DNA of 64,000 nucleotides from assembly GCA_958296105.1 (NCBI GenBank), contig OY282441.1, positions 2,067,800-2,131,799 of the forward strand. Direction: 5' to 3'. A program made the translations under genes and the position numbers. How positions within the stretch are numbered: position 1 is the first letter of the stretch; the number at the start of each line of letters is the position of its first letter. The notes beneath the pieces are model-generated. The model saw nothing but the letters and a program-made list of their open reading frames with translations, did no database searches and was not told where the DNA came from. Of this stretch, positions 4,722 to 20,134 are shown in pieces. The stretch is from an uncultured Dehalococcoidia bacterium. GTDB taxonomy: Bacteria; Chloroflexota; Dehalococcoidia; Lucifugimonadales; UBA1123.

Positions 4722-5687
4722 CTACCCGTATCGGATTCTTGGGTCTAACCAAGCGTAGCTCAGGTCGGTTATCAGGATTATGAGCAGCACGAAGAGGCTG
4801 AAGACGAACGTCACTCCGATGATGACCGGGAAGTCTCGCAGGAAAGCGGCTTCGACCGCCAGCCGCCCCATTCCGGGCAGTCCGAAGAGCTGCTCGATTA
4901 TGACGGAGCCGCCAATCACGACGGGGACGTTCAGCCCTATGACGGTTATCACCGGGATAAGAGCGTTCTTGACGGCGTGCCTGAAGACAACGACCCTCTC
5001 CGTCAGCCCCTTGGAATACGCCGTCCTTATGTAGTCCTCGCGCACCACCTCGAGCATCATGGTTCGCATCAGCCGCATGTTGACCCCATTGATTGCCATG
5101 CCGAGTATGGCGGCGGGGATGATGTACGCTTTGAGATTCCCCCAAGGGTCTTCCCAGAGTTTGGGAGGAATGAGCTCGGGCGACCAGCCCCACCAGATCG
5201 AGGGGAATACGATGACCATGATGCCCACCCAGAACGAAGGCAGGCTGATGAACAGTATGGCAACGCTTCGGAACACGTAGTCGGCGATGGAATCCTGCCG
5301 TATCGCCGAGTAGATGGCTACGGGGAACGAGATCAGCAGCGCGATTAGCAGGGCTAAGATGCCGATTTCCAGCGTCACCGGAAGCCTTGCGAGTATCTGG
5401 TCCCTCACGTTGGTTCCCATGATGACAGCTTCGCCGAGGTCGCCGCGCAGAAGCACGTTCGCCCACCAGCGCACGTACTGCACGTAGATCGGGCCGTCTA
5501 TGCCCAGCTGCTCCTCGAGCTGCGCGCGCAGCACCCCGCGGTCTTCCTTCCCAGACAGGTCCATCTGGCCTATCAGCACGTCTATGGCGTCGCCCGGGAT
5601 TATGCGCAGCGAAGCCGTGGTCAGCAGGGTGACGATCAGCAGGGTCGGTATGGCTAGAAGCAGCCTTCTGATTATGTACGTAGACAT
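4722..5687 (-). CDS. Dipeptide/oligopeptide ABC transporter permease, DppB/OppB type
   Basis: A 321-residue permease starting MSTYIIRRLLLAIPTLL, the hallmark first membrane helix of DppB proteins. The GDLGEAV segment, several hydrophobic helices, the EAA loop region around EDYIRTAYSKGL, and the C-terminal DLSYAWLDPRIRYG match the family. It stops 16 bases before the DppC gene starts, so the two are co-transcribed and form the heterodimeric channel. A leucine-rich-repeat lipoprotein gene lies 15 bases upstream on the same strand, in the place where a binding lipoprotein is more usual. Confidence 0.93.
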   Translation of the reverse strand: MSTYIIRRLLLAIPTLLIVTLLTTASLRIIPGDAIDVLIGQMDLSGKEDRGVLRAQLEEQLGIDGPIYVQYVRWWANVLLRGDLGEAVIMGTNVRDQILARLPVTLEIGILALLIALLISFPVAIYSAIRQDSIADYVFRSVAILFISLPSFWVGIMVIVFPSIWWGWSPELIPPKLWEDPWGNLKAYIIPAAILGMAINGVNMRLMRTMMLEVVREDYIRTAYSKGLTERVVVFRHAVKNALIPVITVIGLNVPVVIGGSVIIEQLFGLPGMGRLAVEAAFLRDFPVIIGVTFVFSLFVLLIILITDLSYAWLDPRIRYG

Positions 5688-6886: not shown

Positions 6887-8815
6887 TCACGCCTTGCCTT
6901 CGATCTGTCCGGTGACGCAGTGAGTGCGTACCGGACACTCGCCGCACGCAGGCGAACGTGCCTTGCAGACCAGCGCTCCAAGGTCGAGGAGCGCCTGATT
7001 CCATTGCGCATTCGCACCCTCCTCGCCAGCAAGCTCCCACAGATGAAGCCTCAGTCTCCACAGCGGCTGATCTGAGTCTGTTCCCAATACCCTGTGCGCA
7101 ATCCTGCGAGTGTTGGTATCCATCAGCACACTGTGGCGACCGAAGGCGAAACACTGCACCGCCGAGGCAATGTAGTTCCCCACACCGGGAATAGCCATCA
7201 ACTCTGGCCAGCTGTCCGGGACATTTCCGTCCAGGTTGCTTCGGATGTATTCAGCAGCGGAGGTCAGATTCGCTGAGCGCCAACGGAGTCCAAGCGTCGA
7301 TAAGTATGGTTCCAGTATCCTCGCATTGGCAAGGAACGAGTCCGGAGTAACGCCAGTATCTGTCAGCTTTCGAATCACGCGCGCCACCTGATCGGCCCTC
7401 GTCCTATGGAGACACATCTCCACAATCAGGAACTGCCAGGGGCTCAGGTTCGTTTCTCTCCACGGGAACTGTCGCCCGTGCGCATGGAACCATCCAATCA
7501 GGTCACTCCGGAAAGAAGATCCGTAAGCGGGGCGGCGCTCGCGTATCACCGTGGGAGTGGAACCACCTTTCAGCGCTCTGCGAACCTCAGTGGCTATGGC
7601 TGAAGCCAGCAGAGGCGGAACCGCGTTGCCGATCTGCTTGAACCGATTTGTCGGATGCCCCGCGAATCGGAACCCATCTGGAAATGTCTGGATTCGAGCG
7701 GCTTCACGGATCGACAGGGTACGATCCTCCCGTGGGTGTATGTACCAGTATCCGTCTTTCGCAATGTGAGCCGTGATAGTTCGTGAAACATCTTCGAATG
7801 ACAGGCGGACGTACTTGTCGTTGAATATGTCGGATCGGTATCTCCTCAGATGTTCAGGCACGTCTAAGTAGGTGTCCCCCGGCTTCATATGACCGTAGAT
7901 CACAGCGTCGTCCGTGCGCACCCCTCTGGTGATATGGTCTCGAATCAACCCGCGTTCCTCGCCCTGTAATCCCTTTCGCAGGGCCTTCGCAAGTGACGAA
8001 GTGGGCTGGCCTTCATAGCGCTGTGCCTCGTCCCTCGTGTCGGCGGGGATTGTGGGAAGATCGCCGATGGCCTGCCAGACCGTTGGACGCTCATCGGAAG
8101 ACTTGGGCCAGCTGAAATCTATTCCGTCGGCGACACCCACCACGAAAAGGCGTGATCGATGCTGCGGAACGCCGTAGCGCCATGCTTTCAGCTCTTCGAC
8201 GTGGACCCTATAGTCTCGCCTCTTCAACTCGTCCACAAGCGACACGAGCATCGCGCCTCCCTGAGCTCGGGCGAAGTCTGGAACATTCTCGAAGAGCATG
8301 GCGCGAGGAGTCAGACGGTCGAGGATGGCGAAGAAGCTCTGCCACAGGTCAGCTCTCTCGTCATACGCGGGTCTGCTCCCCGACTTTACCAAATGGCCGA
8401 TCTTGGCTGTGCCAGCCCTGGAAAACGGTTGGCACGGGGGGCCGCCGGCTAGGAGATCTATATTCTCGATTCCCCATCGGTCCAGTTGCTCGATGAATAC
8501 ATTCGGATCAGTCAGGTCCCCGACCCAGGTGAGACCGGGGATGTTAGCCGCATGGGTCTCCATTGCCACCGGGTCGGAGTCCGCCGCGGCAACTACAGAG
8601 AATCCGCCCTGTGCGAGTCCGAGGCTCAATCCCCCTGCCCCCGCAAACAGGTCAACAGCCCAGGGTCTGGGGAGACCATCCAGCCATCTCCGGATTGCAT
8701 CGGGGTCACCTTGGTCAGGAGATAGGGGATGGGCGTCAGGGGCCACCCGCGTACCTCGGCGAGTCGGAAGCCTGTATCCCTTTTTCAGATTACCTGGGGA
8801 GCCCAACGATCCCAA
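6887..8815 (-). CDS. Cytosine-5 DNA methyltransferase fused to HhH-GPD [4Fe-4S] DNA glycosylase (DrmMII-like)
   Basis: A 642-residue two-part protein. The N-terminal part (about 50-430) is a C5 methyltransferase: motif I DLFAGAGGLSLGL, catalytic GGPPCQPFS (Cys near residue 128), ENV, QHRSRLFVVG, and GNAVPPLLAS as motif X. The C-terminal part (about 445-642) is an EndoIII/MutY-family glycosylase: FPWR, helix-hairpin-helix IPGVGNYIASAV, the catalytic Asp in LMDTNTRR, and a C-X6-C-X2-C-X5-C iron-sulfur loop at the end. The EndoIII lyase lysine is replaced by Tyr, as in the T:G mismatch glycosylase Mig.MthI. I infer that it methylates self DNA and repairs its own deaminated 5-methylcytosines. It starts (TTG at 8815, or the TTG three codons later) 3 bases after drmB, fitting the methyltransferase slot of class 2 DISARM. 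Confidence 0.9.
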   Translation of the reverse strand: MGSLGSPGNLKKGYRLPTRRGTRVAPDAHPLSPDQGDPDAIRRWLDGLPRPWAVDLFAGAGGLSLGLAQGGFSVVAAADSDPVAMETHAANIPGLTWVGDLTDPNVFIEQLDRWGIENIDLLAGGPPCQPFSRAGTAKIGHLVKSGSRPAYDERADLWQSFFAILDRLTPRAMLFENVPDFARAQGGAMLVSLVDELKRRDYRVHVEELKAWRYGVPQHRSRLFVVGVADGIDFSWPKSSDERPTVWQAIGDLPTIPADTRDEAQRYEGQPTSSLAKALRKGLQGEERGLIRDHITRGVRTDDAVIYGHMKPGDTYLDVPEHLRRYRSDIFNDKYVRLSFEDVSRTITAHIAKDGYWYIHPREDRTLSIREAARIQTFPDGFRFAGHPTNRFKQIGNAVPPLLASAIATEVRRALKGGSTPTVIRERRPAYGSSFRSDLIGWFHAHGRQFPWRETNLSPWQFLIVEMCLHRTRADQVARVIRKLTDTGVTPDSFLANARILEPYLSTLGLRWRSANLTSAAEYIRSNLDGNVPDSWPELMAIPGVGNYIASAVQCFAFGRHSVLMDTNTRRIAHRVLGTDSDQPLWRLRLHLWELAGEEGANAQWNQALLDLGALVCKARSPACGECPVRTHCVTGQIEGKA

Positions 8816-8818
8816 CCT

Positions 8819-10684
8819 TCAAGCAGTGGTGACATTGATCGAAGCGTCGTCGAAGAATCCCACTTCAGGCATATCGGGGACACCTACCAGTAGCCCCCGG
8901 TCAAGAAGGCGATTTCCCGTCTCGCAGGAAGTCTCAGGTAACAGGACGCATCCGTGGCAAGCTGCGATGTTGGCGTTGTCAGTGCCCTGTCCAGAACTCT
9001 CGATGCAGACGGGGTCACTGGAGCACCACCGCGCCCGATGTATCGCCCGCTCGAAAACAGCTTTCAGGTGGTCAGGCTCACCCTGACGTACAAGTCCCCC
9101 GAGAGTTCCCTCGGAATCACCGGAAGCTGTGTATATCAGAACACCCTGCATCGGCCGGTCAGGATCTTCCATGTTGCAGTAGATGCGCTCCCTCAGCGCT
9201 GCGCTGCCGTAGCCACAGTCGAAGCTCAGCTGGCCAATCAGGGCGTGGGCGATTGTATGCAGCAGCACATATTTCTCAGTGACCATGGCCATTCCCATCC
9301 CACGTTCACTACGACGCTCGTTGTAGCGCTCGCTCAGCGACGAAATACGCTCTTTGACTTTGACGTGCGAATGCCACTTCTTGGTCCACGCTTCTAAGCT
9401 GCTGTAGTCGAACTCGATGAAGATACCCTCCCCATAAACGACCGTTGCGGGAAGCCAACCCAGATCCGCATTCTGAGACATGGGAAGCAAGTTCGGTGAA
9501 GACGGGTCTTCAATTGGAAGAAGCCTCGAGAAACCGACCAACACCCTCGTTTCGCGTAGTTTCCTCACCAAACCGATACTGCTCAGAACTCTCGCCAGCT
9601 TTGCCCCATATCCCGATGGATCTTGGAGTTCCACCATCAGGTCGGTAGTCTCACCACCTCGCCCACTCCTGAGAGCCTCGTACTCCTGCCTGCGGAACTC
9701 CTCCTCAGAACGAGGGTGGGTATCTGCGATTTCCCGGGTCCCGTCGAGCTTTCTCTGCGCAGCTTGGCGCAACTCTTCAGGATCGACGCGATGAATGGTG
9801 GCGAGTATCTCACACCTCACTGTTTGGATGTATTTCCCGTCATCCAGTTCTGCCGTGAGAGCGTTCCACGAACTCGTCTCATCGAGGATTTTGTTGATAG
9901 CACGTTCAGAGTCTTCTCCCCATAGGGGAAGGTAGATGGATGAAGCCGTCAGCGGAAAGTAAACGTTCGATGCTCCTCGCTGCACGACCCTCAGGTACTC
10001 TCCGCAATGTCCCGGCTTGCCCTCAATATCGCCAACCCATGGCATGTTCCCAGAGCAGTCGTGACCGATTCCATGGAGCGCTTCGGGGTTGAATGTACCA
10101 GTCATTGTTTCCGACTTCCCGCAGCAGCAATCTATCCGGATTCCCGATAGGCTCGCAGAAGATCGACCCGGCAATAGGCGCAGCCTGTGCTGACTGTCCC
10201 AATCAGACTCTCTGTGAACCCATCTCATGAACGGAAAGTCTTCGATGTGTCCTTTAGGACAAGCCGCGACGAATCGGCTGGGAATCATCCATGGACGTCT
10301 GTTCTCAGGCATTGAGTGGCAGTCCAGGTCCGAACGACACGGGCATCTGCGGCGAGGGCTGAAGAGGTGCAGCTCGTCCATTACTCCCCTCCTCGGGCAG
10401 TAGAGCCATCTGGGAAACCTCACAAAGGGAATGTGCTGATTCGCATGTTGGACTCCCTGCCCCTGTTCCCTGAAGTCTGGAGGAAGCCTGAAGTGGTTCA
10501 CCTTCAATCGTGCTTGGAGACGCTCCTCTTGGACGAGCCAATCATTCGGACACGGCTCATGGGCAAAAGGCCACTCATCGAGCCCGGCTGTCATCAGGGA
10601 CTCATCACCAGGGAAGTCGACGAGCGCGCCGACCCCGAATGGGCTGATCAGTTGGCCTCTCCTCATCGGTTTTTGGGCTGGCAT
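8819..10684 (-). CDS. drmB: DISARM DrmB-like protein (DUF1998)
   Basis: The ATG at 10684 begins MPAQKPMRRGQLISPFGVGA, which matches the start of DrmB proteins (SQLI-x-FGxG). This start avoids a long overlap with drmA. About 621 residues. The C-terminal DUF1998 region is clear: LLHTIAHALIGQLSFDCGYG, GVLIYTASGDSEGTLGGLV, and a Cys cluster ending AACHGCVLLPETSCE that probably binds zinc. In DISARM, DrmA and DrmB form the complex that senses and acts on incoming phage DNA. It lies 52 bases after drmA and 3 bases before the methyltransferase, so it is part of one operon. Family identification is strong; the precise biochemical step done by this protein is not settled by sequence. Confidence 0.85.
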   Translation of the reverse strand: MPAQKPMRRGQLISPFGVGALVDFPGDESLMTAGLDEWPFAHEPCPNDWLVQEERLQARLKVNHFRLPPDFREQGQGVQHANQHIPFVRFPRWLYCPRRGVMDELHLFSPRRRCPCRSDLDCHSMPENRRPWMIPSRFVAACPKGHIEDFPFMRWVHRESDWDSQHRLRLLPGRSSASLSGIRIDCCCGKSETMTGTFNPEALHGIGHDCSGNMPWVGDIEGKPGHCGEYLRVVQRGASNVYFPLTASSIYLPLWGEDSERAINKILDETSSWNALTAELDDGKYIQTVRCEILATIHRVDPEELRQAAQRKLDGTREIADTHPRSEEEFRRQEYEALRSGRGGETTDLMVELQDPSGYGAKLARVLSSIGLVRKLRETRVLVGFSRLLPIEDPSSPNLLPMSQNADLGWLPATVVYGEGIFIEFDYSSLEAWTKKWHSHVKVKERISSLSERYNERRSERGMGMAMVTEKYVLLHTIAHALIGQLSFDCGYGSAALRERIYCNMEDPDRPMQGVLIYTASGDSEGTLGGLVRQGEPDHLKAVFERAIHRARWCSSDPVCIESSGQGTDNANIAACHGCVLLPETSCETGNRLLDRGLLVGVPDMPEVGFFDDASINVTTA

Positions 10685-10736
10685 CGTACTTGCACATCTC
10701 CCATTGGTTGGGCTTGATAACAGGTTTTCAATCGAC

Positions 10737-13700
10737 CTACGTGTTGGCGTATCCGCTGACCAGAGGCCGTGCTGAACAGCTCGCGTCCACATTCCGCATC
10801 GAACTCGGCGTTGGGTATGGCGTTTCGGGCCAGTGGGGATGTTCCTGTCCACCGGCTGGATACATCATTGGCAATTCCTCAGTTGGCGGTCTGAAGTCGC
10901 CGTATTTTGATCTTGGCGCGTTCGACCACTTCCGCATGATCTCGTCCACGTGGGCCTCCGTCTTTGGCCACTCGTCGGGATCGACTGACATGACTCGTTC
11001 CCGGATTGTACGTTTGACCCGCTGTATGAGCTGAGCATCCGGAGGCTGATTGGGTCTGTCACGAAGGCTGGAACCGCCCCAGAACCGACATAGGATGACT
11101 ATGAGCGCGTGCAGCGCTCGTTCTCGAACCGGAACCGCAAATGGCGTTACACTGGTGGGCTCGACGTGCTGGTACAGGGTCTGGTGGTATGATCGGAAGT
11201 GTTCATAGTGTGACCGGTCCCTGGATCTGGAGGGATTGTAGTTCGTCACTACGATTCCGGGGCTCTCCACACGACGGCCAACCCTGCTGGACGCCTGTAT
11301 GTACTCTGAAGTTGTCTTTGGCTGCCCGATGATGGTCATTAGGCTCAGTCGAGGAATGTCGAGGCCGACCTGAATCATGTTGGTCGCAAAGCAGACATCA
11401 ATCGCCTCAGTTTTGGAAGGGCCACTGTATCGGGTGAACAGCTGCTGGAGGATTGGCGGGATGTTGTTACTCTGAACTCGACTGGTCAACTCTACATCCC
11501 TGTTGATGAACCTCCGCTGATCTGTCGCAGCTTTCCGCGTAGCCTCGAGGCGCAGGCCGAGCCTGTCCCACATGGCATTCAGATATTCTCGGATGTCTGC
11601 CCGAATAAGCGTCGCCGCGTGACCGAGTTCACGCAGGCTGTTGAAGTAACCCATCATGGTCCAGTAGGGATCGATCGAATCGGGCTTGGCGGCATTGAAT
11701 AGCTTGGGCGCCTGGAGCAGCGCTCCCATAGTCCGAATCTGCGAGGTCACATGTGAAGGCAGCGCGCTTGCGAACACGCCAACGTATCTCCGCCCTTCTT
11801 CGTCTTCGCGTTCCTTGGCAAAGAAAGAGTCCCCAGCCCTCAGAACTTGGGGAGGGAATAGAAAGGCAGATCTGCCGTAGAGCGCCTTCACTTGGCTGTC
11901 GGCCCTGGAAATGGTTGCGGTCGATGCGATCACCTTTGCGCGAACTCTTGATTCAGCCTGCTCGTTCGTACACAGTGCGTCAATCGCTGTTTCGTAGTGA
12001 CCAACCATAGAACCGAGGGGGCCAGAGATAAGGTGCAGCTCGTCTTGGACGATCAATTCCGGAGGAGGATACGCTGTGTCTATCCCAAAGATCCTTCTGG
12101 CTTCCGGTCGAAAGGCGAGCATGGCGAATTTGTCCACAGTGCCTATCAACAGGGTGGGAGGTGATGCGTAGATGTGATCATCTATGACAGCTACCGGCAA
12201 CCCCGCACCGGAGCTGAAATCGCAGTCTCGATCCTCGCAGATGTGTCTGACCCTTTGGGGACTGGCCAGAATGCGGTATCCCTTGACTCCCGTTCTCCGC
12301 CCCACCTTCTGCGGCCCCATTGCCGCGCCGCACCATGGGCAGCTGAGCAGGATGAATTTGTTGGTTCCCTCATTCCGTTGGAGCTGCCGTAGTGTGATGA
12401 TTGCATTCTGTTCGTTATTGGGCGTGACCTCCCCGCCCACCCACAATCCAATTGAGAATGGCTCTGAACCCAGTCTGGCATTCTCGCGGCGTCGGATAAC
12501 CTCACACGCGCAGATCAGAGACGCCGCGCGCTGAAACTGCTGTGTGGTCAGCAGCCTGAGTGTGTAGCGCATGAGAATGCTTGTTCCCGCATGGTCGGGA
12601 TTGCGCAGCCGTCGGAGAAACATGGTGAAGGCCGACAGCCCTAGATACGCCTCAGTCTTGCCTCCGCCGGTGGGAAACCATATCACATCCACGATCTCGC
12701 GTTCTTCGCAGTGAGGATCGGATAGCGCCCTGAGATTCATCAGGATGAATGCAAGTTGGAAGGGATACCATTTGCTTGTGGAATCATCATACGAGGGTCT
12801 CTGAAAGCTGGTATTCAACTCCAGCCGCCCCGATCTGTTCACCCAAGCGCGGGAGTTCTGCGATGCAATCTCATAGTGGATCTGCTGCATCAGCATGGCT
12901 TCGTTCATCAATCTGAAGGCCAGAGCCACTTCGGAGTTCTGCCCGATGAGTCCAATACCATCTCGCACGCGCCTGAGACACTTGCGGCAGTTGCCCAGAT
13001 GCCGATGCGCAGTCTTCGCTAGTTTCGGGGTCAGGTCCGACCGACCCGCAACCTCGCGCTCCTGTTCGTCGATCCATGCCTCATACGCATCTGCCAGCCT
13101 GCTGCATAGGCTCAGCACATCCTCGATACCGCCATGGGCAAGCATATTCATGCTCAGGTCGAGTCCCTCAAGCTCGGTGGGCAGTACAGGCTTGACTTCG
13201 TATGTTGGAAGCACTTCGGTCCGAACCAAGGCTGTACGTCCATCGGTTGGCTCATCCCACTCAGCAGCGCAGCCATGCCCGACTGCAAATGTCTGCCTGT
13301 GGAGGTGAAGAAGCTGAAGAGACAACTCCTCCTCGTCACCCGTGTTAGTGGGACGCTCTGGATAGCTGAGAAAGCATTCCCGTTCATCAGCATCAGAGAC
13401 GCCAAACCCGCACTGGAAGAAGCAGTCCGTATTGCGGGGCGCTCGGTTCTCAGACTGCAAACGGTTGACGAGAGTGAATGTTATGAGCCTGGCTCTGTCC
13501 GACCGATCAGATGGGCGACTGATTACATGAAGGGCGAGAGCGGTTTTGCCATCCACTTCTTCTACGACGGGCTTCTCCAATGACCTGTTCCTGTTCCCGA
13601 GCAGTTCCGATGCCTGGAACTCAATGGTTCGGTTGACCGGCTGTCGGAGCCAGGGTTTACGACCTGATCGGATATCGTCTGACTGCTGGGCATCTTCCTG

Positions 13701-14204
13701 CCTGTACATCGCGGCAGACACATCGACCCGCAGCTGGTCGGGGACTTCCACCAATATAGAGAGTCCCATCGCACTTGGCAGGTACTGGTTTGCAAGGTTG
13801 ACTTCCAGGTCCGTTTCAGGTGTGCTGTCGCTCCCTCCATATGAATCCGTGTCATTCGAGTTTTCCAGTATCCCTGCGGATTCAGGAGATTCGGCCTCGG
13901 CGTTGCCTCCCTCATCGGCGGCGGTCTCATCTTGGCTGGGAACCTGAGACCTCACCGGGAACAGAACGCCAGCGCCATACCGCTGCCTGGGCGGGTCCTG
14001 TGGTCGGAGTATCTCCTCTTCGTCGGGCTGCACATTGAGAGGAAGAGGCGATGGTCCCACGAGTTCCTTGCGCAGAAAATCCAAGATGAAATCACGTGCT
14101 GCAAGAGTTTCGTTCAATTCCGAAGCTCCTTTTAGGGCTAAGGCACGTCTCTCCGCTGAGCTCGACACAGCGTCGTCAATGCGCGTAGGTATCATCTTCG
14201 CCAT
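10737..14204 (-). CDS. drmA: DISARM DrmA-like helicase
   Basis: An 1155-residue SF2 helicase of the type that accompanies DUF1998 proteins. Walker A is FPTGGGKTEAYLGL (near residue 510), Walker B is VQDELHLI, motif III is ASTATI, and motif VI is QASSRVGRR. The N-terminal half (about 1-480) lacks recognisable catalytic motifs and contains an acidic, Ser/Asp-rich stretch near residues 95-130. A CPWC and a later cysteine pair around residue 650 may form a zinc site inserted between the helicase motifs. It starts 13 bases after the drmE-like stop and is followed by drmB, giving the DISARM core order drmA-drmB. The predicted role is DNA translocation or loading on invading DNA. Confidence 0.87.
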   Translation of the reverse strand: MAKMIPTRIDDAVSSSAERRALALKGASELNETLAARDFILDFLRKELVGPSPLPLNVQPDEEEILRPQDPPRQRYGAGVLFPVRSQVPSQDETAADEGGNAEAESPESAGILENSNDTDSYGGSDSTPETDLEVNLANQYLPSAMGLSILVEVPDQLRVDVSAAMYRQEDAQQSDDIRSGRKPWLRQPVNRTIEFQASELLGNRNRSLEKPVVEEVDGKTALALHVISRPSDRSDRARLITFTLVNRLQSENRAPRNTDCFFQCGFGVSDADERECFLSYPERPTNTGDEEELSLQLLHLHRQTFAVGHGCAAEWDEPTDGRTALVRTEVLPTYEVKPVLPTELEGLDLSMNMLAHGGIEDVLSLCSRLADAYEAWIDEQEREVAGRSDLTPKLAKTAHRHLGNCRKCLRRVRDGIGLIGQNSEVALAFRLMNEAMLMQQIHYEIASQNSRAWVNRSGRLELNTSFQRPSYDDSTSKWYPFQLAFILMNLRALSDPHCEEREIVDVIWFPTGGGKTEAYLGLSAFTMFLRRLRNPDHAGTSILMRYTLRLLTTQQFQRAASLICACEVIRRRENARLGSEPFSIGLWVGGEVTPNNEQNAIITLRQLQRNEGTNKFILLSCPWCGAAMGPQKVGRRTGVKGYRILASPQRVRHICEDRDCDFSSGAGLPVAVIDDHIYASPPTLLIGTVDKFAMLAFRPEARRIFGIDTAYPPPELIVQDELHLISGPLGSMVGHYETAIDALCTNEQAESRVRAKVIASTATISRADSQVKALYGRSAFLFPPQVLRAGDSFFAKEREDEEGRRYVGVFASALPSHVTSQIRTMGALLQAPKLFNAAKPDSIDPYWTMMGYFNSLRELGHAATLIRADIREYLNAMWDRLGLRLEATRKAATDQRRFINRDVELTSRVQSNNIPPILQQLFTRYSGPSKTEAIDVCFATNMIQVGLDIPRLSLMTIIGQPKTTSEYIQASSRVGRRVESPGIVVTNYNPSRSRDRSHYEHFRSYHQTLYQHVEPTSVTPFAVPVRERALHALIVILCRFWGGSSLRDRPNQPPDAQLIQRVKRTIRERVMSVDPDEWPKTEAHVDEIMRKWSNAPRSKYGDFRPPTEELPMMYPAGGQEHPHWPETPYPTPSSMRNVDASCSARPLVSGYANT

Positions 14205-14217
14205 AATTCATCACCCA

Positions 14218-16788
14218 TCAGAATACGGAGTCATCGCTCCCCAGCAGCCGATTGGTCTGGTCTGCTGGGTACTCTTGCTGATGTGTGTCCACGGACTCGA
14301 CTTGGACGATCCACGCCTGCCCGTATCCGAGGTCGAGCAGTATGGGCTGATCATCCAGTTGACCCAAGCGGCCACGTACCTCACCAAGGATAAGCTGGGT
14401 CAGACGACTCCCCGCCACTATGTGAGCCCCACGAATCCTGGAGATGGCTTCCCTGACAGTGTCCAATCCTGCAAGGAGTTCTGCGTCATTTGCAGCTCTG
14501 GCAATGGCTTCGATGTCACTGTCGTAGCCAGGTCCGATGCGGTCGGGGTTCCCCATCCAGCCTGCAATCGTTGGGAGTGTTCGGCACAGCCCATGCTTTT
14601 CCAAACGTCTTTGGACCGTAGCAGGAGCGCCGCCAAGACGACGGAGCGACGATTTCCACAGTTCAGCAATCGACCGTATTCTTCCGTATTCCTCAGTTCC
14701 GAGCTCGTCTTCCGCCAGCAAGCGAATGAATTCCTTGTCTCCGCCTGCTCTGAACAGTACGAAGTCGTCGTGCGATAGGTCGGAGGCTGCCACAGTTCGC
14801 AGTCGCCCGCTGGCTCCGGGTCTGCTGTCTATGAGTTCGTTCAGCACGTGCAGCTGAGACCACTCTGTGAGAAGAGCGTAGCGCCCTCCATAGAATTCAA
14901 CCAGCCGCGCCCGCCGGGTATCGTCTCCTATGCCTGCTGGAGATGGGCGCTTCGAGCGTCGCCGAGAGACCCTGTCCTCGAATTTGAGCATGGGCGGATC
15001 AGACGATGCTCCATCTGATGGCATATGTGGCTGCTGCATCTTCATCGCAGGGAGCAGACTGGATTCAACTCCAAGAATCGCGGCTCGTTCCTCCACCTCC
15101 ATTCGGTTGGACTCCGCATTAGAGCGTTCCCGGGTTTGGTGACTCAACAACCATCTGCGCTCGAAGGGATAAGCCAGAACCCGGATATCCTGCGTAACTG
15201 CTAAGTTCTTCAGGCGGGTGAATCGGCTGCCGTTGGGCCAAGCAGGTACGATAATGCCATCATACTCATCCTCTGGTGGGATCGACCGCACAGGAATGAC
15301 AGGCATGTCGGCTCCAAGATTACTCAGCCCATCCCGAAGCCACTCAGAAGTTCGAGGCGACCTTGCAGCCACAGCCCACCGTCCATCGGATTCAGTGAGC
15401 AGGGTCAGTAGGGCTTCGGACTTTTCCCCGTAGCTGCCCCCACTGGCCAGAGCGCTCTCTAACTGGTCGATTGTGTTCTGAAGTTGAGTGACGATATCGG
15501 GATCCAACCACCTTTGGTTCCGATCCAAGCTATCTTGAGCCTCTCGCAGGTTGAGTCTGGTCTCTTCTCCAACTCCAAGGCAACATTCGCTGATCTCCAA
15601 CAGGATGCCGTAGAGTCGTGCCAATATGTCATCGACCTCGGATCGTTCCTCGGTTCCGTTGATCGCGTTTGCCACTCCTTCCAAGGTTGACGCCACTGCC
15701 TCGAGTTCATGACTGTTGCAGTCAACGGCAGTTACTCTGCACTGTCCTCTCACGACTGACGCCCTAATCGTTCGTCCAACGAGGCTAGACCGAGAACGCT
15801 CGCTGGGTAGATCCTCTCCCATCAGAATCTCGCCTGCCGACATGTACCAGATCGGGCAATCTCGATCTCGCAGGAAACCGATCTCCTCGGTTTCGTCAGG
15901 TGACGCCAGTATCACGACTCTCTGACGCTCCGCAATATCGTCGAACGCCTGAAGGTCTCTGGCTATGCCGCGAGCCCCGTCAACGAGGACAATCTTGGAC
16001 TCCTCACGTGCAGATGCAGCTGTATTCGCCAGATCTTGAGGCACCCTCGTGACAGCTATCAGCGGCTCTCCAATCACCTGGTACGCATCACCCGCCATCA
16101 TCTCGCCCCCATGTCCGAGGGTTCCCCAGGACAGAAAGGCTGAGAGTGGGTCGAAGTGACTTGAATGAGCTGGCGCTAGGGAGACAGCGCCCGCGATCTT
16201 TGCGAAGCGCGCTTGTGCCATATACAGCAGTACGACATTCCGAATCATACTGATGTTCCCATATGTCGTGATGTCGAGTAGATCATCGAGACTGCTGCGG
16301 TCGAAGACACCCAGCTTGGAAGCGAGCGTTCCCTTTGGTCGTTTGCGGGTCGTGGGTTCGAGCCTCAGCACCTCGGACGTTAGAAAACTACGCCGATCCG
16401 TTTTGTCCAGTACCTTCAGCCTGAACTGACCGGGATGTTCGTCCCAGATGCCTTCATATTCGTAAACGAAGTCGCTCGGCTTTACCCTGACACGCTGTCC
16501 TTTGTCCAGCGCTGTCCGTGCGTAGCTCTCTGCAAGCTGAGGGAAATCTTCTTGGAGTCGTGCGAGCGCCAGAAGTACGGCTGCGACTGCGGTCGTACCC
16601 TGGGTCTTGTCCAGAACGAAGCAACACGCCCCCGGTTCACCATTCATGGCAGCGGCGAGCAGGAGGGCGAAGAACCATGGAATTCGCTCTTCTGGCGAAT
16701 CTTCACCGAACCGTCCGGCGACACGATCGAATATCGGAAACCGGCTGCGCAGCTCGTGGATCAGGTCCTGGCTGCTATTCCTGCTCAT
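14218..16788 (-). CDS. DrmE-like large protein of class 2 DISARM
   Basis: An 856-residue protein immediately upstream of drmA and nearly touching it. Length, position and the N-terminal layout (a CCFVLDKTQGTTAVAAVLLA segment, then a KPSDFVYEYEGIW segment) resemble DrmE, the class 2 DISARM component of unknown biochemical function. I see no Walker A, no HKD phospholipase motif and no PD-(D/E)XK motif, so it is not DrmC. The central region has acidic, leucine-rich stretches (about 370-460) that may be helical. The identification rests mainly on context and overall pattern, hence moderate confidence. The alternative is an unrelated accessory protein replacing DrmE. Confidence 0.6.
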   Translation of the reverse strand: MSRNSSQDLIHELRSRFPIFDRVAGRFGEDSPEERIPWFFALLLAAAMNGEPGACCFVLDKTQGTTAVAAVLLALARLQEDFPQLAESYARTALDKGQRVRVKPSDFVYEYEGIWDEHPGQFRLKVLDKTDRRSFLTSEVLRLEPTTRKRPKGTLASKLGVFDRSSLDDLLDITTYGNISMIRNVVLLYMAQARFAKIAGAVSLAPAHSSHFDPLSAFLSWGTLGHGGEMMAGDAYQVIGEPLIAVTRVPQDLANTAASAREESKIVLVDGARGIARDLQAFDDIAERQRVVILASPDETEEIGFLRDRDCPIWYMSAGEILMGEDLPSERSRSSLVGRTIRASVVRGQCRVTAVDCNSHELEAVASTLEGVANAINGTEERSEVDDILARLYGILLEISECCLGVGEETRLNLREAQDSLDRNQRWLDPDIVTQLQNTIDQLESALASGGSYGEKSEALLTLLTESDGRWAVAARSPRTSEWLRDGLSNLGADMPVIPVRSIPPEDEYDGIIVPAWPNGSRFTRLKNLAVTQDIRVLAYPFERRWLLSHQTRERSNAESNRMEVEERAAILGVESSLLPAMKMQQPHMPSDGASSDPPMLKFEDRVSRRRSKRPSPAGIGDDTRRARLVEFYGGRYALLTEWSQLHVLNELIDSRPGASGRLRTVAASDLSHDDFVLFRAGGDKEFIRLLAEDELGTEEYGRIRSIAELWKSSLRRLGGAPATVQRRLEKHGLCRTLPTIAGWMGNPDRIGPGYDSDIEAIARAANDAELLAGLDTVREAISRIRGAHIVAGSRLTQLILGEVRGRLGQLDDQPILLDLGYGQAWIVQVESVDTHQQEYPADQTNRLLGSDDSVF

Positions 16789-16819: not shown

Positions 16820-16972
16820 TCACCGTGGGCATTGGCGAACTCCTCTGCCGCCAGACAGCTCAGAGAGCATGGCTGGCCGGATGCACAGAATCTCGGCAGT
16901 CTTCGCCACACTCAAGCCCGGCTCCTCGGCGATCTACACTCGGATGAAGTCGCTAGGATGAGAGAATATCAT
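16820..16972 (-). pseudogene. HigA-type XRE antitoxin remnant
   Basis: In the 373-base gap between the TPR gene and the drmE-like gene, the minus strand reads MIFSHPSDFIRV, stop, then IAEEPGLSVAKTAEIL and an RPAMLSELSGG segment before a second stop. HPxxFIR, GLSVAKTAE and LSxLxxG match the first half of HigA antitoxins. The in-frame TAG is at 16934-16936, and the second half is missing. It is therefore a short dead fragment. No intact HigB toxin is recognisable upstream of it. Confidence 0.65.
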
Positions 16973-17161
16973 GGTCACCTCAATTACACCAGTAGTAGCC
17001 ATCAGTTGCGCACGCTTCGAGGTATAGGCGCACCCTCTTCGATACTCGATTGGTACGTGAGAGTCTCCACCAGAGGATTGGCCGGATAACATGTGAACGA
17101 CCCGATGCCGCGGATGATTCCGTTCGCAATAGCCAGTTGTGTGGCAGGCCATCAGGTCTGT

Positions 17162-18871
17162 TCAGCGCCTCTGACGCGCCCGCCGCTTTCTCTTGGGGGA
17201 AGGGTATTTGCCTTCCCGCCAAGCGATGAATGCGCCTGGTTCTCCAAGCCGCCGGGCAGTTTTGGCATAACGGACTCCCTTCTGTTTATCAGTCAGCATA
17301 AAGGCGCAGTGCGCGGCGTGGAGATGAGCTGTTGCATAGTCCGGCCTGGCTTTAATCACCATCTCGAACTGTTCTAGGGCTTCGTCCAAAGCGGACAGCT
17401 CCATCAGGGCGTATCCGGTGGCAAATTGCAGATGTGGGGTTGGGCTGGGCAGGCGCTCGGCAGCCTGGGCGAGGTCTCGAATGGCTTCGTCAAATGCTCC
17501 AATGTTGGCCAGCATAATTCCTGGCTCGACAGCGGGAGTGTCCCAAGTGGGAAGGAGAGCGGAGGCTATGTGACATTCGATGATACCTTCGTCCACGAGG
17601 TCCCTGCGCCCCATGTGCTTGCCCACCATGCCAAGGAACGAACCCAATTCGTTGTGCGCCCTCGCGCTGTTCGGGAAGTCACGAACGATGGCGCGGCGTT
17701 GTGCAATACCATCATCGAGAATTCTAAAGAAGGCCGCCGGCCCCCCGCTCAGTACGGACAGGTAATTGATGTTGTCGATAGTTGACATAAGCCGGGAGAA
17801 GACCTCAGCGTCATCTGAATCAGATGAATCGACCGGAATGTCCTGTGCCAAGCCTGCGGATGATTTGGGCGATAGCGTCTGGCCACCCGCCCACTGGAAC
17901 GGAACACTCCAATCAACCGTCGCTGCGAGAATGTCCCTCTTCCATCCTGGGTCCTTTTCCAAGATGGCAAGGTTTCGCAGGAGATTATGACTCAGGAGAT
18001 AGGCTGTTCCCAGTCGCAGGGCGTCTATCTCCGCCCCGGCCGCCTCTTCGAGTGGCGGGCGGTCCATGCTGTTGACGTCTTCTGTCATCAGCCAGATGAA
18101 TCGAACGAGCGCCGCGCTCAGATCCATGACCTGCTCTCTGCCGATAAGATGAGCCACGAGGTCGGCGACGTGCGCGAAGGCAAACTGTCGACGAATGTTC
18201 TGCTCCAGCTGTTCCGGTCTCGATCCCGCAGTCCGTCCCGCAAGAACTTTGGCTATGACGGAGATGTTCTCGGGTGTGGGGCGATTGTTCCCATCTAGCC
18301 AATTGTCCACCGAGGTGGCGGAAACTCCCAAACGAGCGGCCAGTTGGTCGCGGGTAAGATTGGCCCCCCGCGTCAAAGCGCGGAGAAGTTTGCCCCCGCC
18401 GTTTTCCTGCGACCACAATGGCGTTTCAGGCTCACTTGGCTTTAGCCCAGCGAGCCGCATGAGAGCGAATGCCCTAACTGCCAGATCGACGACCACGATG
18501 CGAAGAAATCCCTCCACGGCCTTGCCTGAGTCGGTCGTTCTGCCGGAGCGACTCTGCATCGTGGAGACCAGTTGGTCCCATCGCTGGGCTGCGCGAGCGA
18601 CTGTCGCTGCGACTATGATGGGCATGGACACGTCCCGCTGTCGGAACAGGGGCGGCACAGGCACGATTCCCCTATCGACCAGAACCTCGCCAATCGCCAG
18701 GAGTATTTTAGTATGGCTGTGTTGGTTGACGGGCTGGCCTGCGAAGAAACGTCTGGCCGTTCTGTCATCCAGCACGTCATGATGGATGGCGAGCGCATCC
18801 ACGACGGCTCCGATGATCTGTCCACTGTAAACGGACAGCATGGGGACGGGCTTTACTTTGGAATCACTCAT
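17162..18871 (-). CDS. XRE-family HTH protein with C-terminal TPR repeats, coupled to viperin
   Basis: A 569-residue protein. A helix-turn-helix of the XRE/Cro type is visible near residues 172-205 (LTRDQLAARLGVSATSVDNW), so DNA binding is likely. The C-terminal third (about 395-545) contains tetratricopeptide-like repeats, including ALMELSALDEALEQFEMVIK, and the protein ends in a very basic tail (KRKRRARQRR). The first 160 residues are not recognised. Its start overlaps the last 8 bases of the viperin gene, so the two are translationally coupled. I infer either a regulator or sensor of the viperin/DISARM operon, or an effector. No enzymatic motif is visible. Confidence 0.8.
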   Translation of the reverse strand: MSDSKVKPVPMLSVYSGQIIGAVVDALAIHHDVLDDRTARRFFAGQPVNQHSHTKILLAIGEVLVDRGIVPVPPLFRQRDVSMPIIVAATVARAAQRWDQLVSTMQSRSGRTTDSGKAVEGFLRIVVVDLAVRAFALMRLAGLKPSEPETPLWSQENGGGKLLRALTRGANLTRDQLAARLGVSATSVDNWLDGNNRPTPENISVIAKVLAGRTAGSRPEQLEQNIRRQFAFAHVADLVAHLIGREQVMDLSAALVRFIWLMTEDVNSMDRPPLEEAAGAEIDALRLGTAYLLSHNLLRNLAILEKDPGWKRDILAATVDWSVPFQWAGGQTLSPKSSAGLAQDIPVDSSDSDDAEVFSRLMSTIDNINYLSVLSGGPAAFFRILDDGIAQRRAIVRDFPNSARAHNELGSFLGMVGKHMGRRDLVDEGIIECHIASALLPTWDTPAVEPGIMLANIGAFDEAIRDLAQAAERLPSPTPHLQFATGYALMELSALDEALEQFEMVIKARPDYATAHLHAAHCAFMLTDKQKGVRYAKTARRLGEPGAFIAWREGKYPSPKRKRRARQRR

Positions 18872-19787
18872 CGCTGGTCACCTCCATGAGCATGGTCTCC
18901 GCCGGGCTTGGCTGGTTGCTCCAATCATACAGACCGCCTCGCTGACGGAATAGATCGGGATCGACTGCAATGTCTTTCAGCGCTTCGGCTACTCCCACCT
19001 CGATGATTGGCCTGCTGTAATTGTGGCGTCCCTGCACATTATCGAAGAAGCGGCCGGCAGGGTCGACCATCACGTAGCTTCCACGCATCAGGTCGTTTTT
19101 CTCTGGAACCACCACTATTCCACGATCCTCCACCACCTTGTTTCGGCTCACATATGCTTCGAATTGGCGTTGGTCGATGGTGTGGCGACCAATGTCCGCG
19201 TCGTTCTGACCTGCCACGGAGAGCACCTGGAATATCTTCCACCGTTCGGGCTGGGCCACTGTGATGAATCCGCTAAGGTCATCCTCCCACGTGTCAGCCG
19301 TGACGACCGTGTTTATCTTCAGGCGGATGTCGCGCTGTCTGATCAACGCGATTATTCCCAGATAATCCTGTTCAGTCAGAGGACCTGAGGGAGTAGCCCG
19401 CCCCGTTCGAGCCAGTATCGCTTGGTCAACCGTGTCGATGCTGATGGCAGCCCAATCGAGATGCCCCTCGACTTCGTCCAGCCATTTATTGGTGATTCTC
19501 GTCCCGTTGGTGACGATGGCAGTGGTCATGCCCCGGCTCTTCGCTATGTGGATAAGCTCCGGCAGCCAGGGGCACAATGTGGGTTCGCCACCGGCAAATG
19601 TGATCTTGTCAAAGGACGCTTCCGACAAAAGCTCTACGACCTTCGCGCAATCCCCCTGCTTCATGTGGCCCTTGGGAAGGATCTGCTCCTTCACATCCAG
19701 AAAGCGAGCGAAACAGAACTTGCACCCCATGTTGCAGGGTTCCCAGAGATGGAAGTTCACTGACGGGATTTCCCTGGCGATACTCAT
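18864..19787 (-). CDS. Prokaryotic viperin (radical SAM ddhNTP synthase)
   Basis: The ATG at 19787 is preceded by a good GGGAGG site and gives 307 residues. The radical SAM cluster motif CNMGCKFC uses Cys18, Cys22 and Cys25; FAGGEP follows at 64-69. The rest tracks animal viperin closely: SVNFHLW just before the cluster, AISIDT, LKINTVV, RWKIFQVLSVAGQND, YVMVDPAGRF, then the C-terminal IEVGVAEAL and RQRGGLYDWS. Known viperins convert CTP, GTP or UTP to 3'-deoxy-3',4'-didehydro nucleotides, which stop viral RNA polymerases. It is first in the minus-strand defence set and overlaps the XRE/TPR gene. An upstream in-frame start at 19874 is possible but has no better ribosome site. Which nucleotide it uses cannot be read here. 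Confidence 0.9.
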   Translation of the reverse strand: MSIAREIPSVNFHLWEPCNMGCKFCFARFLDVKEQILPKGHMKQGDCAKVVELLSEASFDKITFAGGEPTLCPWLPELIHIAKSRGMTTAIVTNGTRITNKWLDEVEGHLDWAAISIDTVDQAILARTGRATPSGPLTEQDYLGIIALIRQRDIRLKINTVVTADTWEDDLSGFITVAQPERWKIFQVLSVAGQNDADIGRHTIDQRQFEAYVSRNKVVEDRGIVVVPEKNDLMRGSYVMVDPAGRFFDNVQGRHNYSRPIIEVGVAEALKDIAVDPDLFRQRGGLYDWSNQPSPAETMLMEVTSDE

Positions 19788-20134
19788 TTTTGCCTCCCAG
19801 CGACGCTTGATGTTCAGGAGCATCTCTCCCATACACAGTAAGTATAGGTCGGTGTGGGGGATTCTATGACCCAAGTATATTGGACAGTCCCCTTTGCACC
19901 TGCATCTTTGCGCGAGCCGTCATCCTGGACCGAGACAAGGAGACGATTCCGAGATAGCCCTTGATTGAATGCAAAGCCAAGCAGTCGAGTTGTTGGCTCG
20001 AAGCCGTGATGCCCGAGAACCCATCCCGGTGAGGTAAACTATGATCTCTTAGAGTTGCCAATCTACGCGAACCCTTGAACAATATCGACTGTTCACTGGG
20101 AGGCGCTAATGATGAACAATCTGTGAGGTCGACC
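19788..20134. promoter_or_regulatory. Divergent intergenic region between the two defence gene sets
   Basis: About 350 bases separate the viperin gene (minus) from the restriction subunit gene (plus), so promoters for both sets should lie here. I see TATACT-like -10 candidates for the minus strand (19841-19846 and 19874-19879) and a TATGAT candidate for the plus strand (20040-20045), but none has a convincing -35 at the right distance. No gene is supported in this stretch. Confidence 0.5.

What the first reader, a model, noticed from the sequence alone, without database searches (positions are those of the whole stretch)
17162..19787. Viperin translationally coupled to an XRE/TPR protein
The radical SAM protein at 18864-19787 matches viperin along its whole length, not only in the CxxxCxxC motif. 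Its stop overlaps the start of an XRE-HTH protein with TPR repeats by 8 bases, so the ratio of the two proteins is likely controlled. Bacterial viperins are usually described as single genes or next to nucleotide kinases. A paired DNA-binding/TPR partner could be a phage sensor, a repressor that opens on infection, or a second effector. I do not know of a described viperin with this partner.
Basis: partly seen in the sequence, partly recalled or inferred. Interest (0 to 1): 0.8.

Follow-up and report, generated by a model that had tools for sequence, protein, structure and literature searches.

The report
Viperin gene with its own sensor-regulator
A bacterial version of the antiviral enzyme viperin sits in one operon with a DNA-binding repeat protein, and a matching 17-base DNA signal in front of that operon recurs where the partner occurs, which suggests the partner is the switch that controls the antiviral enzyme.

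Summary
Observation confirmed. 18864-19787(-) is a full-length viperin; its stop overlaps by 8 bases the start of 17162-18871(-), an XRE-HTH/TPR protein ("XTPR"). The pair recurs: directly adjacent in 8 genomes, in a ninth split by contig ends; all Chloroflexota. New here: a 17-bp element, TGTCC[A/G]N4ACT[T/G]GGG, begins 82-113 nt before the first start codon in 11 of 11 viperin-XTPR modules and, somewhat weaker, in 6 of 6 modules where XTPR follows a ~50-aa peptide gene instead of viperin. It was not found at 13 of 13 viperins and 20 of 20 peptide genes examined that lack XTPR. It directly precedes a sigma70-like promoter, the position of a class II activator. Best reading: XTPR senses something through its TPRs, binds this element and controls its own operon, making viperin inducible. 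Binding, ligand and direction are inferred. The window's own site is weak when its kin are left out (p 0.012). The pair precedes a DISARM-type operon, but two related DISARM loci lack it and seven other pairs show no DISARM nearby, so it is a separate module. A TPR-associated viperin system is already reported, in Archaea only; its relation to XTPR could not be tested. Verdict: real, a new variant of a known kind.

The parts
19870..19886 (-). conserved 17-bp element TGTCCAATATACTTGGG, proposed XTPR binding site
   Evidence: same motif starting at -82 to -113 in 11 of 11 viperin-XTPR and 6 of 6 peptide-XTPR modules, not found in the controls; the exact pattern TGTCCRNNNNACTKGGG occurs once in the 3.18-Mb genome
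19864..19869 (-). putative -35 hexamer (TCATAG, weak: 1 of 6 matches to TTGACA)
   Evidence: hexamer 17 nt before the -10; (C/T)TGAC in 7 of 17 modules at this place; coordinates; not listed by the generic promoter scan
19841..19846 (-). putative -10 hexamer (TATACT)
   Evidence: mean 3.56 of 6 matches to TATAAT over 16 modules at this spacing from the element, at most 2.5 at 27 other offsets
18864..19787 (-). viperin (radical SAM ddhNTP synthase family), 307 aa, CxxxCxxC at C18, C22, C25
   Evidence: NF038283 292 bits over cut-off 180; cysteines invariant in the 5 sequences of A1; tree
17162..18871 (-). XTPR: XRE-HTH/TPR protein, 569 aa, its start overlaps the viperin stop by 8 bases
   Evidence: Pfam HTH_3 and TPR; homologues directly downstream of viperin
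18233..18400 (-). XTPR residues 158-213, XRE helix-turn-helix
   Evidence: HTH_3; model m52056e6f048c, residues about 151-240 match P22 c2 repressor, HigA and R-M C-protein structures at Z about 8-11
17237..17716 (-). XTPR residues 386-545, TPR domain
   Evidence: block pLDDT about 59-93 and Foldseek matches to TPR superhelices
6887..16788 (-). neighbour, not part of the module: DISARM-type operon drmE (14218-16788), drmA (10737-14204), DrmB-like (8819-10852), C5-methyltransferase with EndIII-type iron-sulphur region (6887-8815)
   Evidence: NF038316 and NF038325 over cut-off; MZB, and DNA_methylase plus EndIII_4Fe-2S

Best explanation
The window holds a two-gene, self-regulated antiviral module. 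Viperin makes a chain-terminating ddh-nucleotide (family knowledge). XTPR is its dedicated regulator: a central XRE helix-turn-helix binds a 17-bp element just upstream of the -35 of the operon's promoter, and the C-terminal TPR domain receives a signal (phage protein, peptide or metabolite, unknown). With the site centred near -44, XTPR most likely activates its own promoter when it binds its ligand (positive feedback that switches viperin on); repression from the same site is the second choice. Shown by computation: the conserved pair, the HTH and TPR folds, the element, its link to XTPR rather than to viperin, and the promoter layout. Inferred: that XTPR binds the element, the sign of regulation, the ligand, induction by infection.
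For: Viperin and XTPR are directly adjacent in 8 genomes: window, G046, G215, G309, G592, G640, G482, G580; G574 has two copies of each gene cut at contig ends. The element is found in 11 of 11 such modules (9 genomes; G574 and G482 have two each, the G574 pairing inferred) by a matrix that leaves the module's own group out: p at most 0.0003 per 300 nt in 10, 0.012 in the window. It is also in 6 of 6 modules where XTPR follows a small peptide gene (p at most 0.0003 in 4, 0.0026 in G526, 0.025 in G577), and not found at 13 of 13 viperins without XTPR (best p 0.074) or 20 of 20 examined peptide genes without XTPR (best p 0.040); 58 other viperin loci score at most 7.9. Layout element / -35 / 17 nt / -10. 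Over 147 genomes a stricter 22-nt form has 5 exact matches, all before viperin-XTPR modules (G046, G640, G580, G574 twice). The HTH region folds like P22 c2, HigA and R-M C-proteins.
Against: No binding or expression data. The window's own element is only modestly significant when its sole close kin is left out too (p 0.012), its -35 matches 1 of 6, and the generic promoter scan lists no promoter there. The stricter 22-nt form does not match the window or G592. One XTPR without viperin or peptide (G578) has no element (p 0.075). Of five 1-mismatch sites four lie away from known XTPR genes, against 3 for the reversed control. The conserved promoter could partly reflect common descent of the cassette. 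The fold tool warns that Z under about 13 for helical parts can be a common arrangement. The XTPR model outside HTH and TPR is of low to medium confidence.
Confidence: 0.62

Rival explanations
1. XTPR represses its own operon from the element, and infection or a ligand on the TPRs lifts the repression.
For: Several XRE proteins matched in fold are repressors (P22 c2, HigA, DdrO, CapH, roles from titles or recalled); autorepression is usual for defence regulators (recalled).
Against: The element ends directly before the -35 rather than between -35 and -10 or over the start site; the weak window -35 (TCATAG) fits a promoter that needs an activator.
Confidence: 0.25
2. The element is a promoter feature or site of another host factor, inherited with XTPR as one block; XTPR acts only as a protein partner (phage sensor, scaffold or second effector) and its HTH is vestigial or binds elsewhere.
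For: No binding data; the element is tied to XTPR loci, so common descent alone could keep them together.
Against: The two XTPR groups (28-31% identity to the window protein for L026, L058, L059) keep the 17-bp core at one position while the flanks have diverged; the HTH keeps V188, W191, R197, P198 invariant in 6 of 6 aligned proteins.
Confidence: 0.12
3. Viperin and XTPR are accessory genes of the downstream DISARM operon.
For: Same strand, 373-nt gap, no terminator-like site found there on that strand.
Against: DISARM loci of G028 and G496 (DrmE 72% and 66%) have no viperin or XTPR upstream. A tblastn of DrmE, DrmA and DrmB against the 3.7-19.9 kb held around seven other pairs gave nothing, except a short DrmA-like match in the Druantia gene of G046. 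DrmE was found in only 3 of 247 order genomes.
Confidence: 0.04

Closest known systems
Prokaryotic viperins (pVip; NF038283, PADLOC PDLC02903-02905)
   Same: Full-length viperin well over cut-off, CxxxCxxC, nested among bacterial viperins
   Different: No nucleotide kinase seen beside it; an XRE-TPR gene and a conserved regulatory element instead
Viperin system associated with a TPR protein, reported only in Archaea (PMC12988326, passages read, citing Bernheim 2021, not read)
   Same: Viperin beside a TPR protein
   Different: Ours is bacterial (Chloroflexota), with XRE HTH and a conserved element; against PADLOC XTPR matches only HTH parts of RmrA and CapH models, weakly; homology to the archaeal protein could not be tested
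RRNPP regulators (Rgg, PlcR, PrgX and others; criteria read in PMC10075063, passages)
   Same: HTH plus TPR; relatives of XTPR lie next to a 50-60-aa peptide gene; PrgX is among the HTH fold matches
   Different: 569 aa here, 482-877 aa in relatives; HTH in the middle, not N-terminal; not from Bacillota; the peptide family also occurs without XTPR
Viperins beside hicA/relE toxin genes (PMC10865869, passages read)
   Same: viperin with a second gene beside it
   Different: the partner there is an RNase toxin, here a DNA-binding TPR protein
BrxR-type WYL-domain regulators of defence islands (PMC9122601, abstract in a listing and passages)
   Same: regulator that goes with defence genes
   Different: unrelated domains (WYL; winged helix recalled)

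Membership tests
Prokaryotic viperin | whole-length match over the curated cut-off of NF038283 | tested here: met
   292.2 bits, cut-off 180, profile 2-280 of 281
Prokaryotic viperin | radical SAM CxxxCxxC | tested here: met
   C18, C22, C25 invariant in the 5 sequences of A1
Prokaryotic viperin | placement with viperins rather than MoaA-like proteins | tested here: met
   nested among bacterial viperins in an 87-row tree; the outgroup root is weak (SH-aLRT 45) because the two non-viperin rows are very long
Prokaryotic viperin | formation of ddh-nucleotides, anti-phage activity | not testable with these tools
   needs assay
RRNPP quorum-sensing pair | TPR-bearing receptor | tested here: met
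   Pfam TPR hits (below single-repeat cut-offs) and modelled TPR domain
RRNPP quorum-sensing pair | receptor of 250-500 aa | tested here: not met
   569 aa; relatives 535-877 aa except one of 482
RRNPP quorum-sensing pair | small propeptide gene directly adjacent | tested here: inconclusive
   no NPNN-type peptide beside the window pair; a mechanical 72-aa ORF lies downstream of XTPR at 16934-17152(-), with no evidence that it is a gene; 6 of 7 XTPR genes without viperin have a peptide gene upstream
RRNPP quorum-sensing pair | propeptide with secretion signal | not tested
   no signal-peptide predictor run
Archaeal viperin-TPR system | homology of the TPR partner | not tested
   the passages read give no sequence; the archaeal search was not accepted
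DISARM (neighbouring operon) | DrmA helicase, DrmB, DNA methyltransferase in one operon | tested here: met
   NF038325 981 bits over 950; DrmE family 160.6 over 80; DrmB by position and its MZB domain only, and a C5 methylase

The most novel reading that the evidence does not exclude
XTPR plus its element-bearing promoter is a portable control cassette: an intracellular infection sensor of a new HTH-TPR class that drives interchangeable head genes, viperin in some genomes and a small NPNN-type peptide in others, so that bacterial viperin is induced by a dedicated, self-amplifying switch, loosely analogous to interferon control of animal viperin.
Probability: 0.3. Interest if true: 0.82.

Novelty: new variant of a known kind. 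Interest (0 to 1): 0.6.

Why it matters
In the rows and passages that I saw of the open-access literature (listings, all capped) nothing says what switches bacterial viperins on. A viperin whose partner, binding site and promoter can all be named from sequence makes that question directly testable: one protein, one 40-bp DNA fragment, one reporter. If XTPR senses phage, its TPR domain would be a new class of infection sensor, and its swap between viperin and peptide operons would point to further inducible defence genes.

Tried and rejected
Chance or mis-annotation: rejected. DISARM accessory genes: see rivals. Internal duplication of the HTH in XTPR residues 1-75: hhalign probability 1%; Pfam matched 1 of 7 members, LacI at E 0.17; the medium-confidence model hints at two similar helical units, left open. 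Genome-wide XTPR regulon: 15 sites with at most 1 mismatch in G000 against 11 for the reversed pattern, no clear excess. Structured RNA leader: Rfam gave one sub-threshold hit, E 0.39, near the start of drmE. Phage origin: no XTPR match in 50,697 phage records; with the patterns used, no XTPR or viperin relative confirmed in IMG/VR; 9 of 72,556 plasmid records matched, over the TPR part only. XTPR in the class: 13 of 393 genomes at E 1e-5, of which only G000, G459 and G306 match beyond the HTH. The small peptide as a private partner of XTPR: rejected, it occurs in 25 of 247 order genomes in varied contexts. Full-length XTPR model: pLDDT 58.5, used only for HTH and TPR. Apart from PrgX no RRNPP receptor stands in the rows shown (50 each); such an absence says little. 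Literature on the peptide motif: 0 papers for four strings.

Rows dropped: the matrix was trained on 9 of 11 paired elements, near-copies L067 and G574b left out, and the null was scored with that full matrix; L207 and L175 removed as duplicates and L008 (the second viperin, first taken as outgroup) removed before the viperin tree; XTPR fragments of L168 and L210 dropped and rows cut to 570 residues for the XTPR tree; the genome scan kept 80 of 179 relatives; of 21 peptide places without XTPR or viperin beside them 20 were fetched, G599 was not. Upstream regions of viperins without XTPR were taken from the start of the tblastn match (of L057: the ORF start), those of the 20 peptide genes from 15 nt before the motif; peptide starts in the XTPR modules are my assignment.

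Full report
What is there. On the minus strand, 18864-19787 encodes a 307-aa viperin and 17162-18871 a 569-aa XRE-HTH/TPR protein (XTPR below); they overlap by ATGAGTGA, 8 bases. The viperin passes the NCBI equivalog cut-off with 292 bits, is called pVip by PADLOC and aligns over its length to solved viperins. XTPR has an XRE HTH at about 158-213 and TPRs at about 386-545. Against PADLOC it matches only weakly and only through its HTH (RmrA, CapH).

Surroundings. Downstream on the same strand, after 373 nt, follow drmE, drmA, a DrmB-like gene and a C5 methyltransferase with an endonuclease III-type iron-sulphur region, i.e. a DISARM-type operon. Divergently lie a BPTD_3080-type restriction gene and a type III methyltransferase, then AAA/SMC-like, Schlafen AlbA_2 and UvrD-like genes, probably a defence island. 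The window is 2067800-2131799 of a 3.18-Mb contig. Record titles of several relatives name Dehalococcoidia (Chloroflexota).

Recurrence. In the phylum sample 3 of 400 genomes carry a viperin over the cut-off, and all three have XTPR directly downstream of one. In the order sample of 250 genomes, XTPR (over 100 bits) occurs in 14 and viperin in 13, both in 7 (Fisher p 4.5e-7, not corrected for relatedness). In all, the genes are adjacent in window, G046, G215, G309, G592, G640, G482 and G580; in G574 two copies of each are cut off at contig ends. Viperin reading frames are broken in G482 and G580, and XTPR is in pieces in G580. So the partner is real but, as far as seen, phylum-bound, and most viperins lack it. 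The second viperin of this genome also lacks it.

Trees. The paired viperins form two groups (window with L060; L064, L065, L067, L068; SH-aLRT 99 each) inside a 13-row group (92) that also holds kinase-linked viperins of Poribacteria and Latescibacteria; one close relative (L061) has no XTPR. XTPR also falls into two groups, and its nearest kin include copies without viperin. One old pairing with later losses, or two pairings, both fit.

The cis-element. Aligning the sequence upstream of viperin showed a shared core, TGTCC[A/G]N4ACT[T/G]GGG. A 23-nt matrix, leaving out the module's own group, finds it starting at -88 to -99 in 11 of 11 viperin-XTPR modules (9 genomes; G574 and G482 two each). 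Against 30,000 random 300-nt windows from 91 loci without XTPR, p is at most 0.0003 in 10 of them; for the window, whose only close kin was left out as well, p is 0.012. In the window it lies at 19886-19870, the only exact match in the genome. It ends directly before a -35-like hexamer, 17 nt from a -10-like hexamer: over 16 modules the -10 position averages 3.56 of 6 matches to TATAAT and no other of 27 offsets exceeds 2.5; the -35 is (C/T)TGAC in 7 of 17 and poor in the window. If that promoter is right, the element spans about -52 to -36, where class II activators sit (general knowledge). A stricter 22-nt form, which does not fit the window or G592, has 5 exact matches in 147 genomes, all before viperin-XTPR modules; of 5 one-mismatch matches, 1 is such a module and 4 are elsewhere; the reversed control has 3.

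The element follows XTPR, not viperin. Seven XTPR genes have no viperin in view (G002, G459, G526, G577, G578, G586, G306); the first six genomes lack viperin, G306 has none over the cut-off; G005 is cut at a contig end. Six of the seven (not G578) are directly preceded by a small ORF of about 50-60 aa with the motif NH.NQMNPNNDAYW.SRGYDERPDDWE. All six carry the element at -82 to -113 (p at most 0.0003 in four, 0.0026 in G526, 0.025 in G577); G578 does not (p 0.075). Thirteen of 13 viperins without XTPR (best p 0.074) and 20 of 20 examined peptide genes without XTPR (best p 0.040) lack it. So promoter, element and XTPR travel together while the first gene differs.

The peptide. It is found in 25 of 247 genomes of the order in varied contexts, so it is not private to XTPR. 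But it follows, in the same frame, just after the stop of this genome's second viperin, and related small ORFs lie within 1.2 kb of viperin in 9 of 80 loci: L066, L070, L075, L077, L080, L084, L089, L092, L100, seven of them Bacteroidota, mostly with a shorter form (the 3-substitution hits in L064, L102 and L130 look like chance). I have no explanation for this.

Mechanism. I commit to XTPR as the operon's own regulator, more likely activator than repressor, with the TPR domain as receiver of an unknown signal; viperin as effector. The steps shown are sequence conservation and fold; binding, sign and signal are inferred. RRNPP regulators work in this general way, but XTPR fails their length criterion and has its HTH in the middle, and a neighbouring propeptide is not established in the window, so I do not file it there (criteria from passages of PMC10075063).

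DISARM. DrmE relatives occur in 3 of 247 order genomes: window, G028 (72%) and G496 (66%). In G028 and G496 nothing like viperin or XTPR precedes drmE, and no DrmE, DrmA or DrmB relative was found in the DNA held around seven other pairs, apart from a short DrmA-like match in a Druantia gene beside G046's pair. So the neighbourhood in the window is best read as co-location in a defence island.

Known and new. A viperin system with a TPR protein, 'found exclusively in Archaea', is named in PMC12988326 (passages). I could not read the source it cites (Bernheim 2021) nor Shomar 2024 and could not search Archaea. In the rows and passages seen I found no viperin with an XRE-TPR regulator and no regulator of bacterial viperins (capped search listings; passages); most subscription papers are not held. 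Hence a new variant of a known kind.

Noticed in passing
window 14133-14204 (start of drmA); L205 13531-15300, L206 6117-7877: Related DISARM loci (G028, G496) carry a 586-589-aa gene between drmE and drmA (NERD nuclease plus UvrD-like helicase by Pfam in L205). In the window this gene is missing, and the first 24 residues of drmA match that gene's N-terminus (75%, L205) while drmA proper matches from residue 30: an apparent internal deletion that fused the two.
   Followed up: partly
window 6887-8815: The C5-cytosine methyltransferase of the DISARM-type operon carries a C-terminal endonuclease III-like iron-sulphur region, perhaps a built-in glycosylase for repair of deaminated 5-methylcytosine (function inferred).
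   Followed up: no
G000:C1:93729-94553 and 93606-93692 (L057): The same genome has a second viperin (51% identical) without XTPR and without the element; a small NPNN-type peptide ORF follows in the same frame just after its stop.
   Followed up: partly
L066 9609, L070 11589, L075 9358 and 12007, L077 9353, L080 11175, L084 9451, L089 9353, L092 1722, L100 9353 and 11975: Small ORFs with N..NQLNPN-type motifs lie within 1.2 kb of viperin in 9 of 80 loci. Four XTPR-linked relatives have no Pfam match (these ones were not scanned); no paper mentions four motif strings.
   Followed up: partly
L063 7820-9640, also L062, L066, L070: Viperins of Poribacteria and Latescibacteria are preceded by a similar ~600-650-aa protein (no Pfam match in the three scanned) and followed by a kinase gene (thymidylate-kinase-like by Pfam in L063; by eye in L066 and L070).
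   Followed up: no
L072 7447, L076 7779, L078 8321, L107 3647, L121 7803, L122 7631, L132 8590: Of 10 genes upstream of other viperins that were scanned: one TPR with weak Mrr-like, two NERD, one response regulator with LytTR, two sigma70-region-4-like (one weak), one divergent MarR-like, one squalene-cyclase-like, two without a family; dedicated regulators of viperin may be common.
   Followed up: no
L210 1117-2249 (G482:C183): One viperin copy in G482 is split by about 1.1 kb holding a 360-aa ORF that looks like a transposase (my reading, not scanned); viperin frames are also broken in G482:C30 and G580.
   Followed up: no
L252 (Vibrio cortegadensis plasmid) 4959-5102: An NPNN-type peptide gene on a plasmid lies beside a TIR-domain protein gene.
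   Followed up: no
window 16934-17152 (-): A mechanical 72-aa ORF lies between XTPR and drmE on the same strand; no evidence that it is a gene.
   Followed up: no
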